From a virus: a stretch of 64,000 nucleotides of DNA. Positions 11,418 to 14,176 of this stretch are shown one piece after another. A program made the position numbers and the translations under genes. Below the pieces are notes generated by a model that was not told the origin of the DNA, did no database searches, and worked only from the letters and a program-made list of their open reading frames with translations. Where the stretch lies: positions 17,892 to 81,891 of the IMG/VR virus record IMGVR_UViG_3300027917_000034, one strand, 5' to 3'. Positions within the stretch are counted from its first letter, which is position 1. Every line of letters starts with the position of its first letter.

Positions 11418-12503
11418 ATGGCTACGTGGAGCGGCTTGTCGAGAAAACTCAGGGGGGCGGCGGTGATCGGAGCCATCCTGGTCGCTGTTGCGGCTGGGGC
11501 GTCCGTGACCCCTTTCCTCATCTCCTGCGAAGACACTGCGGAGGCTGGGGAGACCACCTGGGAGGAGCGGCGCCAGAAGGTGAGGGAGAGGCGAGCGAAA
11601 GAGGCCGCCGACTTCCGCCTGCGATGGGAGCAACGCGAACAGGCGTGGGAGGAGCGCCGGGCGAAGCAACTGGCCGAGGACGAGGCGCGGAGAGCGCGGT
11701 GGGAGAGGGAGCTTGCGAAGGCGCCGCCCCAAAAGCGTGTCCGCCGTGTCCGCCGGTTCCGGTGGGAGAGCCCAGCCGAGACGCGGGGCAAGGTCTGGAA
11801 TGTGCCTGTCGAGGAGACCGTGGAGTCGCTGGAGACGGCCCTGCTCCGGGTGTGCATAGCCGAGGCCGATGGCAACCCGCAGGACTGCGCCGGCATCTGG
11901 CAGGTGATCAAGAGCAACCGTCGCCGGTCGTGCGACCGAGGGATGATCCGCCGAATCACGGAGTGCGTGGACGGCGAGGGCGAGACCTACCTCTCCGCCA
12001 TCCGTCGCCACCAGCGCCACGTGCTCGGGATGATCAAGGCCCGCAACCAACGCGCGACGTGGGTGAGAAATCTCACCACGGACTGTGAGATGCCAGAGGG
12101 GTGGCCCGCCAGCCGAGAGCGGTGGGACTCGCAGTACGGCACCAAGACCTGCCCGCAGACCGTGGCCGACGTTCGCCGGCTACTCGCCGGGAAGTTGCCC
12201 GAGTCGAGGCCGGGAGCCCGCGTCCGATGGCTGCCAGGCCGCCCCGTGACGTGGGGAGGTCGCTGCGAGACCGGCAGAGGGGCCTGTGACGACCGGATCG
12301 CCTGTGCCAGGGGTCTGGCTCGCATCCCGGGCACGGACACTCTGAATGCCTTCTGGTGCCGTCCAGGACGTGCCGGTTGCCCGGAGGATATCGACCCGAT
12401 CTGCATTCAGATGGGGTATCCGAGCCGCCTGAAGGCGCCCGAGCCGGCCGAGACGGTGACGGCGATCGATCCCGTGGAGGAGCCCTCAGACGAAAACTCT
12501 TGA
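11418..12503 (+). CDS. Probable lipoprotein with coiled-coil and Cys-rich domain (361 aa)
   Basis: Residues 1-37 form a lipoprotein-type signal: a basic start, hydrophobic core (AAVIGAILVAVAAG) and a lipobox-like LISC ending at C37. Residues 45-110 are a highly charged coiled coil. The C-terminal 230 residues hold about ten cysteines, suggesting disulfides outside the cytoplasm. The segment CIAEADGNPQDCAGIWQV recalls secreted hypothetical proteins of other large phages, but I cannot assign an enzyme. The leader contains a CCCGG-TGTG-CCGGG hairpin at 11385-11398. Outer-membrane spanin or envelope-modifying roles are possibilities only. Confidence 0.7.
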   Translation: MATWSGLSRKLRGAAVIGAILVAVAAGASVTPFLISCEDTAEAGETTWEERRQKVRERRAKEAADFRLRWEQREQAWEERRAKQLAEDEARRARWERELAKAPPQKRVRRVRRFRWESPAETRGKVWNVPVEETVESLETALLRVCIAEADGNPQDCAGIWQVIKSNRRRSCDRGMIRRITECVDGEGETYLSAIRRHQRHVLGMIKARNQRATWVRNLTTDCEMPEGWPASRERWDSQYGTKTCPQTVADVRRLLAGKLPESRPGARVRWLPGRPVTWGGRCETGRGACDDRIACARGLARIPGTDTLNAFWCRPGRAGCPEDIDPICIQMGYPSRLKAPEPAETVTAIDPVEEPSDENS

Positions 12504-12575
12504 CCTCGTGCTCCGAGGGGAGCAGTATCGTCCTCCGGTCTTGTGGAGGCCCACCACTAGACCGGGGAAAAAGGC

Positions 12576-12604
12576 ATAGCTATGAAGCCTCTATGTGATA
12601 TAGT
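12576..12604 (+). promoter_or_regulatory. Promoter for the structured RNA
   Basis: TATAGT at 12599-12604 is a strong -10. At the -35 position (12576-12584) sits ATAGCTATG instead of a TTGACA box; this 9-mer recurs at 12696-12704 within the RNA. Predicted start at about 12611 falls two bases before the first stem. A TTGACC hexamer at 12500 is a possible second promoter with a poor -10. Confidence 0.45.
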
Positions 12605-12610
12605 CCGTTT

Positions 12611-12750
12611 CTGCACGAGCCCGCTTGGAGTACGGGTTCGGGGATTGGCGTTGGCGTAAGCCACGCCCAACGGCGCTCCAAGCGCCGACGTCACAATAGC
12701 TATGCGGTCCCCGTTCTCCGTTGGGCCTCCAAGTGGGCTCGTGCTTTTTT
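12611..12750 (+). ncRNA. Structured non-coding RNA or long leader, about 140 nt
   Basis: An 18-nt arm at 12613-12630 (GCACGAGCCCGCTTGGAG) pairs with 12727-12744 with one G-U pair. Inside are a second stem (CGGGGA 12639-12644 with TCCCCG 12708-12713), a hairpin with a GTAA tetraloop and one bulge (12647-12667), and a 7-bp hairpin with a CCA loop (12671-12687). Six T residues follow the closing stem. The fold begins almost at the predicted transcription start. It could be a free small RNA or an attenuator controlling the replication initiator 32 nt downstream. I match it to no known RNA family. Confidence 0.7.
12727..12750 (+). terminator. Intrinsic terminator of the structured RNA
   Basis: The 3' strand of the 18-bp closing stem is followed directly by TTTTTT at 12745-12750. 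Because the 5' strand is over 95 nt away, termination probably depends on the whole RNA folding, so it may be conditional. Confidence 0.6.
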
Positions 12751-12781
12751 ATGTGCGAGCCACAAGGGAGGAAGGTGGTTC

Positions 12782-14176
12782 GTGCGAGTCGGTCCCGAGC
12801 AATTCATCTACCGCGACTTCGCGTTCATCGACGCGATGATCCTGCCCGTCGTCGGTCCCAAGACCGTCGCCATCTACGACGTCCTCCGTCGCTACATCTG
12901 GCGCGCATCCGACAAGGGGGCGAAGAGGTCGAGAGACGCCTTCAAGAAGGGAAAGCTCTCTGCCTCCATCACCCGTAGCAAGTTGGCCGAGATGTCTGGC
13001 GTCTCCGTCCGAACCGTCCAGCGCCATCTCAACCGGCTCCGGGATATCTCGTGGGTGCGCTGGGAGAGCGGGAACGGGACCGGGGAAACGGTCGTCTACG
13101 AGCTAGGCTTCCGCACCCCGGACGGGGCCGAGGTGTTCTACGCCGACGCCAGCGCCAGGAAGCTGTGGCTCGGCCTGGAAGAGTTGGCCGTGCAGAGTGA
13201 GGTGGAGCGGGTGAACGACCTGCCCTGCGATGTGCGCCTGGCATTCACCCGGGGGTGGTTCGACCCAGAGGGGGGTGGTGACAAAAATGTCACCAGGGAG
13301 GTGTCATCGGTGTCACCAGGGGTGGTGACAGAAATGGCACCTAGTAATAGAGAACCCTTCGGGGAAGAAATAGAGAAGGGTTCCGAATATGCTGGGCGCT
13401 CCGCGCCAACACAGCCAACCGGCCCCGGACCAAAGCATTGGGACCAGCCCGCCGGACAAGAACGTAGAAGAAGGTCTCGGAAGAAGAAGGATCGAGAAAC
13501 AAGTGGCGCCGAGTTTGCTATTGACTCTGCTCTTGACTCCAGGCAGGATGAAGAGGACAGGCTCGAACGCGCGGCGGCGGCCGGGAAGATCGGCAAGTCC
13601 AAGGCCGACAAGCAACACGAGGCTGACGTGCGGCGGGCGCAGAGGCGGTTGGAGGAGAAGCGGACGGAGCAGGTGGAGAAGGGTCAGGCGAACGAGCAGC
13701 GAGCCAAGAACCTGAAGGGCGGGACCAAGTACACGCACGCGGTACTGAAGGCGGCTCGTCGTGCGTGGGACGTCTACTCCGACCTGATCAGAAGTGACTT
13801 CCCCGGCATGCCGGTGGTGAGGTGGAACGCGGATGGCAATGCGAAGGCGCGTGGTCAGATGTGTCGCCTCGTGGATATGTATGGTGGCGATGCCACGGTG
13901 CAAGCGATACGCTATGTGGTAGGAAATTGGGACGCGATCAACAAGCGCTTCTTCAAAAAAGGGCCGGGGAGCGTTCCAAACTTCGGGCTGCTCCTGTCCA
14001 TGCACGAGTCTCTGTTCCGAGAGTCGGCGCTGTGGGGGCAACACCGGGAGGTCGTGGAGGAGTGGGAGGCGTGGCAGCACGAGCACGAGGACGACGACGA
14101 GACGCCTCCCTCCGAGTTGCAGGGGCGCTATGAGCAGGCAAGGACAGCGTTGGAGTCTCTCGGGCTCGGGGGTTGA
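12782..14176 (+). CDS. Winged-helix replication initiator (464 aa)
   Basis: Residues 60-95 contain a helix-turn-helix (SKLAEMSGVSVRTVQRHLNRL) followed by a wing, typical of phage replisome organisers. The middle (about 160-330) is charged and low complexity, and the C-terminal domain (about 320-410) is helical and resembles DnaD-like or initiator C-termini. GTG 12782 has GGGAGGAAGG upstream. The loader, helicase and primase genes follow in order, fixing its role in replication start. The linker coding sequence carries iteron-like repeats, as in lambda O, where the origin lies inside the initiator gene. Confidence 0.75.
   Translation: MRVGPEQFIYRDFAFIDAMILPVVGPKTVAIYDVLRRYIWRASDKGAKRSRDAFKKGKLSASITRSKLAEMSGVSVRTVQRHLNRLRDISWVRWESGNGTGETVVYELGFRTPDGAEVFYADASARKLWLGLEELAVQSEVERVNDLPCDVRLAFTRGWFDPEGGGDKNVTREVSSVSPGVVTEMAPSNREPFGEEIEKGSEYAGRSAPTQPTGPGPKHWDQPAGQERRRRSRKKKDRETSGAEFAIDSALDSRQDEEDRLERAAAAGKIGKSKADKQHEADVRRAQRRLEEKRTEQVEKGQANEQRAKNLKGGTKYTHAVLKAARRAWDVYSDLIRSDFPGMPVVRWNADGNAKARGQMCRLVDMYGGDATVQAIRYVVGNWDAINKRFFKKGPGSVPNFGLLLSMHESLFRESALWGQHREVVEEWEAWQHEHEDDDETPPSELQGRYEQARTALESLGLGG
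13277..13383. other. Candidate replication origin with iteron-like repeats
   Basis: Two inverted repeats, GGTGACA-AAAA-TGTCACC (13277-13294) and GGTGACA-GAAA-TGGCACC (13324-13341), lie 47 bp apart. TGTCACCAGGG recurs at 13288 and 13311, 23 bp apart, about two helical turns. They are followed by a less GC-rich stretch bounded by GAACCCTTC (13352-13360) and GAAGGGTTC (13375-13383). The cluster sits in the linker-coding part of the initiator gene. The origin reading is inference. Confidence 0.55.

What the first reader, a model, noticed from the sequence alone, without database searches (positions are those of the whole stretch)
12611..12750. A 140-nt structured RNA with its own promoter and terminator upstream of the replication initiator
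The gap of about 280 bp before the initiator gene encodes an RNA with an 18-bp closing stem, an inner stem, a GTAA-tetraloop hairpin and a 7-bp hairpin, followed by six T residues. A TATAGT box puts the start within two bases of the closing stem. It ends 32 nt before the initiator start codon, so it could be a free small RNA, a decoy, or an attenuator that controls replication start. I know no RNA family with this layout.
Basis: partly seen in the sequence, partly recalled or inferred. Interest (0 to 1): 0.82.

Follow-up and report, generated by a model that had tools for sequence, protein, structure and literature searches.

The report
Phage replication leader-peptide RNA switch
The folded RNA in front of this phage's replication-starter gene is not a stand-alone small RNA: it is a control leader that encodes a hidden 25-residue peptide and can refold so that translating the peptide should open, and the leader's own RNA should close, production of the replication starter.

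Summary
The stems are real (12613-12744; z = -5.4; no Rfam match), but the "own promoter" is not supported. The same leader, with a 25-27-codon ORF, lies upstream of the replication operon in four other phage lineages. The likely transcript starts near 12535 at a promoter conserved in three of the four relatives. Two RNA layers emerge. (1) The leader peptide's initiation region (SD plus AUG) pairs with the apical 3' strand of the big hairpin; its sequence differs in each lineage yet always matches its own partner (0-2 of 2000 shuffles as strong). (2) A chain of exclusive helices, C:D (the 18-bp stem), D:E and E:F, where F holds the initiator's GUG start codon. Masking C with a ribosome in silico swaps C:D for D:E and dissolves E:F in the window and one relative, partly in another. 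Best reading: a self-locking leader-peptide attenuator controlling replication-initiator synthesis. It works like plasmid rep leader peptides or erm attenuators, with different anatomy; I found no phage example in the papers searched.

The parts
12500..12528 (+). Probable promoter P1: TTGACC - 17 nt - CAGTAT; predicted start near 12535
   Evidence: Same spacing and similar hexamers in L001, L007 (CATCAT) and L011. The -35 overlaps the upstream stop codon; the -10 is non-coding. The -10 matches the consensus at only 3 of 6 positions.
12535..12565 (+). 5' hairpin H1, loop AGGCCCA
   Evidence: Stem kept with changed pairs in L001, L007 and L013, weaker in L011. Loop GCCCA is kept in all five and is complementary to the unpaired bulge UGGGC 12722-12726 (possible second pseudoknot; invariant, so untested by covariation).
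12563..12583 (+). Segments B (12563-12568) and A (12574-12583): SD and start-codon region of the leader ORF
   Evidence: Complementary to the apical 3' strand 12696-12713 in all five lineages; 0, 0, 0, 2 and 0 of 2000 shuffles as strong.
12582..12659 (+). Leader peptide ORF, 25 codons, MKPLCDIVRFCTSPLGVRVRGLALA*
   Evidence: ORFs of 25-27 codons at the same place in L001, L007, L011 and L013. In the SPLGVRVRGLA part, pairwise differences by codon position are 6/3/18, with 14 synonymous and 9 non-synonymous codon differences.
12613..12630 (+). Segment C: 5' strand of the closing stem, within leader codons 11-17
   Evidence: Pairs with D; 15-18 bp kept in all five lineages.
12639..12644 (+). 5' strand of inner stem P3b (CGGGGA), same sequence as segment B
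   Evidence: Pairs with 12708-12713; pairs change together between lineages. Exact duplicate of B in the window, L001 and L007.
12647..12667 (+). P4 hairpin with GUAA loop; the loop contains the leader stop codon UAA
12671..12687 (+). P5 hairpin CGGCGC-UCCAA-GCGCCG
12696..12713 (+). A' (12696-12705) and P3b 3' strand (12708-12713): anti-initiation strand for the leader ORF
   Evidence: 10 of 10 A:A' pairs have two-sided changes across five lineages (segments chosen by hand). Unselected windows give the same. A is the only site with a 10-nt match to A' in the 82-kb genome.
12727..12744 (+). Segment D: 3' strand of the closing stem; can pair with C or with E
12745..12750 (+). U6 tract after the stem (possible intrinsic terminator)
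   Evidence: Present in window, L007 and L011; interrupted in L001 and L013.
12753..12763 (+). Segment E GUGCGAGCCAC: pairs with D or with F
   Evidence: D:E as strong in 1/1000 shuffles here, 14 in L001, 19 in L011.
12775..12785 (+). Segment F GUGGUUCGUGC, containing the initiator GUG start codon (12782-12784)
   Evidence: E:F 11 bp here and in L011, with an A-U to G-C exchange. The hairpin beats all but 5, 10 and 8 of 1000 shuffles in window, L011 and L013.
12782..14176 (+). Regulated gene: replication initiator (winged-helix, O-like)
   Evidence: HTH_24 and phrog_678 O-like matches, both weak; followed by DnaC-like loader, DnaB-like helicase and primase.

Best explanation
A leader-peptide attenuator controls synthesis of the phage replication initiator. 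Transcription from P1 makes a leader with a short ORF. With no ribosome on the ORF, C pairs with D, E pairs with F, and the initiator's GUG start is closed; the stem plus U-tract may also stop some transcripts. When a ribosome reads or pauses on about leader codons 8-20 it covers C, D moves to E, F is released and the initiator can be translated. Once the apical 3' strand (A' + P3b-3') has been made, it pairs with the leader's own SD/AUG (B + A) and shuts off further leader translation, so each transcript would get only a brief window of activity. Shown here by sequence: leader ORF conservation, lineage-specific A:A' complementarity, the exclusive helices. Inferred: that the ORF is translated, the order of events, translational rather than transcriptional output, and the trigger that makes ribosomes pause (unknown).
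For: Leader ORF in five lineages with a third-position and synonymous bias in its C-terminal part. Start-region:apical-strand pairing significant in all five; in the 5x5 cross table every partner pair on the diagonal is the strongest in its row. 10/10 A:A' pairs with two-sided changes. Closing stem kept in all five. D:E and E:F alternatives with significant energies in window and L011, E:F also in L013. Simulated ribosome occupancy in the window: C:D 0.97 to 0.00, D:E 0.01 to 0.84, E:F 0.88 to 0.01; L011 likewise, with start-region openness 0.35 to 0.82. The leader is kept while the first downstream gene changes: initiator, an extra small HTH-like gene, or a different initiator.
Against: Only five lineages, no expression data, host unknown. 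In the window, start-region openness rises only from 0.03 to 0.36. L007 has no convincing E:F; L001's E:F is weaker (64/1000) and its switch partial; L013's default fold without pseudoknots already has D:E. D:E is not significant in L007 (146/1000) or L013 (319/1000). The leader's third-position bias overlaps stem constraints. The leader SD is weak in L013.
Confidence: 0.7

Rival explanations
1. Transcription attenuation: the 18-bp stem plus U6 is a terminator. Leader translation prevents it and lets polymerase enter the replication operon; translational release at E:F is secondary.
For: Stem followed by T6 in window, L007 and L011; terminator-like hit; the leader ORF runs through strand C.
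Against: U-tract interrupted in L001 and L013. D:E forms downstream of the U-tract, so it cannot act as an antiterminator. It does not explain the conserved E:F over the initiator start.
Confidence: 0.15
2. A trans-acting short RNA released by the stem and U-tract carries A' and binds the leader initiation region of sibling genomes, as an immunity or copy-control RNA in the manner of P4 CI or P1 c4.
For: A/A' sequences are highly diversified yet lineage-specific, as expected for a specificity code. The target site lies on the same leader.
Against: A is the only clear complementary site in the window and L001 genomes, with no obvious second leader target in L007; there is no second target as in P4. 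Cis pairing explains the same covariation. No lysogeny context was examined.
Confidence: 0.08
3. One reading: an independent structured 140-nt RNA from the TATAGT box, working as a decoy or regulator of replication proteins.
For: An extended -10-like sequence TG-N-TA-NN-GT is kept in the four close lineages; strong fold.
Against: The kept letters are leader codons; there is no -35; conserved structure and pairing start upstream of it at about 12535; the 5' half is coding.
Confidence: 0.04
4. DNA-level inverted repeats, either operator or origin elements for the initiator, read by chance as RNA structure.
For: D/E and E/F are palindromes beside the start codon; iteron-like repeats lie 500 bp downstream.
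Against: Partner sequences change on both sides between lineages while complementarity is kept; the iteron-like sequence is separate; the leader ORF is conserved; G-U pairs are kept.
Confidence: 0.03

Closest known systems
Leader-peptide/pseudoknot control of plasmid initiators (ColIb-P9 repY-repZ, IncB/IncL/M repB-repA, R1 tap-repA)
   Same: Replication initiator; a short leader ORF whose translation is needed for initiator synthesis (expected here, shown there); a long-range pseudoknot-type pairing in the leader (PMC10286972; Asano and Mizobuchi 1998 as cited in PMC10724649).
   Different: Here the long-range pairing covers the leader ORF's own start, not the initiator's activation site. No antisense RNA was found. 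The leader ORF does not overlap the initiator. No sequence match to an Rfam family was detected.
SGI1 S004-repA leader peptide
   Same: Translation of a leader in cis is essential for Rep synthesis from a start codon inside a stem-loop (PMC7826253).
   Different: There the leader overlaps repA and couples directly; here the leader stops about 120 nt before the initiator and would act through a C:D/D:E/E:F exchange.
erm/cat translational attenuators
   Same: 1:2, 2:3, 3:4 helices, with the downstream start hidden in 3:4 and released when a ribosome sits on strand 1 (leader-stalling control: PMC8274638; helix scheme from my own knowledge).
   Different: Not antibiotic resistance; the inducer is unknown; there is an extra start-codon-masking helix for the leader itself.
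IsrK-orf45-anrP of prophage Gifsy-1
   Same: Prophage leader with alternative folds, an upstream ORF, and terminator-derived short and long forms (PMC4825925).
   Different: IsrK acts in trans to turn on an antiterminator pathway; layout, ORF and target differ.
P4 CI / P1 c4 antisense immunity RNAs
   Same: Short complementary segments on a phage leader upstream of replication or lytic genes (from my own knowledge).
   Different: No second target site here and no Rfam match.

Membership tests
Leader-peptide translational attenuator (erm/cat type) | Short ORF upstream, overlapping strand 1 | tested here: met
   ORF covers strand C in five lineages; translation itself not shown.
Leader-peptide translational attenuator (erm/cat type) | Mutually exclusive 1:2, 2:3, 3:4 helices with the target start in 3:4 | tested here: inconclusive
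   Met in window and L011; L001 weaker; L013 has E:F but a different default fold; absent at E:F in L007.
Leader-peptide translational attenuator (erm/cat type) | Inducer-dependent ribosome stalling | not testable with these tools
   Needs toeprinting or ribosome profiling.
IncI/IncB-type rep control | Antisense RNA transcribed opposite the leader | tested here: inconclusive
   No minus-strand promoter pattern except one weak site in L001.
IncI/IncB-type rep control | Pseudoknot that activates the initiator start | tested here: not met
   The conserved long-range pairing covers the leader start instead.
P4 CI / c4 immunity RNA | Target sites outside the RNA, including one downstream | tested here: not met
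   Only one strong complementary site, upstream.
P4 CI / c4 immunity RNA | Match to the known RNA families (Rfam) | tested here: not met
   No Rfam match at gathering, and only chance hits at E up to 10 in the region.
Group I intron | Conserved P7 core (AUAUAGUC) and Rfam match | tested here: not met
   Motif not conserved in L001, L007 or L013; no Rfam match.

The most novel reading that the evidence does not exclude
A previously undescribed phage RNA control element in which a leader peptide's start region and its RNA lock co-evolve as a fast-changing, lineage-specific code, so that the same RNA acts both in cis as a one-shot translation timer and in trans as a specificity tag that silences replication-starter synthesis from sibling genomes in the same cell.
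Probability: 0.12. Interest if true: 0.85.

Novelty: new variant of a known kind. Interest (0 to 1): 0.62.

Why it matters
Control of initiator supply by a leader peptide is classical in plasmids. I found no phage example in the papers searched. A phage with this device would link the start of genome replication to the state of the host's ribosomes through RNA alone, without a dedicated repressor. The self-masking of the leader start, kept through near-complete sequence turnover in five lineages, gives a ready set of compensatory variants for testing how fast a nascent RNA locks itself.

Tried and rejected
Group I intron (GATATAGTCC resembles a P7 strand): the motif is not conserved and there is no Rfam match. 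RNA with homologues in known phages: no DNA match in 50,697 records. Two of the nearest cultured relatives by DnaB (Pseudomonas phage SM1, Rhodobacter phage RcZahn) have no gap before the gene at the initiator's position and thus no such leader. DNA pattern hits L004 and L023-L034: no credible match to the covariance model. A second, looser group of hairpins upstream of initiators (L014, L020, L021, L070) has long stems and 7-9-nt complementary loops; the 7-nt runs are within chance and no clear leader ORF is present in most; only L070 scores weakly with the model (E = 0.003). I do not claim these as members. Gathering more relatives by initiator alignment gave none new.

Full report
What was checked. 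No Rfam family matches the window and only chance-level hits appear in the region. The gene at 12782 is a winged-helix protein with a weak O-like initiator match, followed by a DnaC-like loader, a DnaB-like helicase and a primase.

Relatives. A homologous leader was found in IMG/VR contigs: L001 (83% identical initiator), L007 and L011/L012 (near-identical to each other). A covariance model of the core (R2) recovered a fifth, far more diverged lineage, L013, upstream of its initiator at E = 6e-6. In L007 and L011 the first gene after the leader is a small extra gene and not the initiator, and in L013 the initiator is of a different sequence type. The leader therefore belongs to the replication operon and not to one protein.

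The missed leader peptide. In all five lineages an ATG ORF of 25-27 codons begins about 30-40 nt before the closing stem and ends in or near the P4 hairpin: MKPLCDIVRFCTSPLGVRVRGLALA, MTRQFLYATVCFCASPLGVRVRGLA, MLTDLPLCDIVPLEASPLGVRVPGLA, MTINFLCDRVRFSASPLGIRVRGLALA and MRHLLCYDSDLTGLLGVPVRGPESLA. For the C-terminal eleven codons of the four closer lineages, pairwise differences by codon position are 6, 3 and 18, with 14 synonymous and 9 non-synonymous codon differences. Because these codons also form stems, the bias is not pure evidence of coding; the shared frame, start and stop add to it.

The self-masking pairing. The leader's initiation region (SD plus AUG) is complementary to the apical 3' strand of the big hairpin. 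In windows placed by position relative to the start codon and the inner stem, the duplex is stronger than 2000 shuffles in four lineages and than all but 2 in the fifth. In the cross table each leader start region binds its own partner more strongly than any other lineage's partner. In the hand-picked 10-bp helix, all ten pairs show changes on both sides (the choice of segments favours this number). The start region crosses the closing stem, so the pairing is a pseudoknot if both form together. In the 82-kb and 55-kb genomes the leader start is the best full-helix partner of A'; in the 109-kb genome a few equal or slightly longer partial matches to the flanks of A' occur elsewhere.

The exclusive helices. 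Strand D of the closing stem can pair instead with E just after the U-tract, and E can pair instead with F, which contains the initiator's GUG codon. E:F is 11 bp in the window and L011, with an A-U to G-C exchange. The 3' hairpin is stronger than all but 5, 10 and 8 of 1000 shuffles in window, L011 and L013, weaker in L001 (64) and L007 (97). D:E is strong in window, L001 and L011 and not significant in L007 and L013. When a 29-nt ribosome footprint is imposed on leader codons 8-20, C:D is lost, D:E rises to 0.84 and E:F falls to 0.01 in the window. L011 behaves the same; L001 partly; L007 exchanges C:D for D:E without an E:F; L013 has D:E by default because the pseudoknot-free program prefers its long A:A' helix.

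Transcript. A conserved promoter-like pair, TTGACC-N17-CAGTAT, sits at the end of the upstream gene in the window, L001, L007 and L011, with its start near 12535, at the first base of hairpin H1. The H1 loop GCCCA is complementary to the otherwise unpaired UGGGC bulge in all five, a possible second pseudoknot whose core does not vary and so cannot be tested by covariation.

Mechanism proposed. With no ribosome on the leader, C:D and E:F close the initiator start. A ribosome on the leader shifts D to E and opens the initiator. The apical strand, made about 110 nt after the leader start, then closes the leader itself. The kinetic order and the inducing signal are inferred, not shown. Transcription termination at the stem and U-tract may contribute where the U-tract is intact.

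Comparison. The function is like the leader peptides required for initiator synthesis in IncI-complex plasmids (PMC10286972) and in SGI1 (PMC7826253), and the helix exchange is like erm attenuators (PMC8274638). It is not a member of the plasmid type by the features tested: the long-range pairing covers the leader start rather than activating the initiator, and no antisense RNA was found. Gifsy-1 IsrK (PMC4825925) shows that phage leaders with upstream ORFs and alternative folds exist, with a different layout and target. The literature library is open-access only, so absence of a described phage case is weak evidence of novelty.

Limits. Five lineages, all virus contigs assembled from metagenomes; host unknown; no expression data. 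The looser group of hairpins in more distant relatives (L014, L020, L021, L070) is left out because the evidence for each is weak. Two of the nearest cultured relatives lack the intergenic leader.

Noticed in passing
window 13272-13341: Three 23-nt repeats with an internal palindrome (GGGGTGGTGACAAAAATGTCACC) inside the initiator gene, a likely lambda-O-like origin.
   Followed up: partly
L020 6177-8672 (also split DnaB in L019, L021, L022): The DnaB helicase of distant relatives is interrupted at the Walker A motif; in L020 the insert is an intein with a LAGLIDADG domain.
   Followed up: partly
L007 2580-3035; L008 1-190; L011 5787-5940: A small extra gene related to the initiator's N-terminal region sits between leader and initiator in some lineages and looks truncated in L011.
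   Followed up: partly
L014 610-713, L020 3866-3973, L021 4054-4157, L070 3360-3471: Long 28-33-position stems directly upstream of initiators, with short hairpin-loop sequences complementary to the apical loop; possibly a second, unrelated or very diverged leader class.
   Followed up: partly
window 12547-12553 and 12722-12726: Invariant GCCCA loop complementary to the invariant UGGGC bulge in all five lineages; possible second pseudoknot or protein site.
   Followed up: partly
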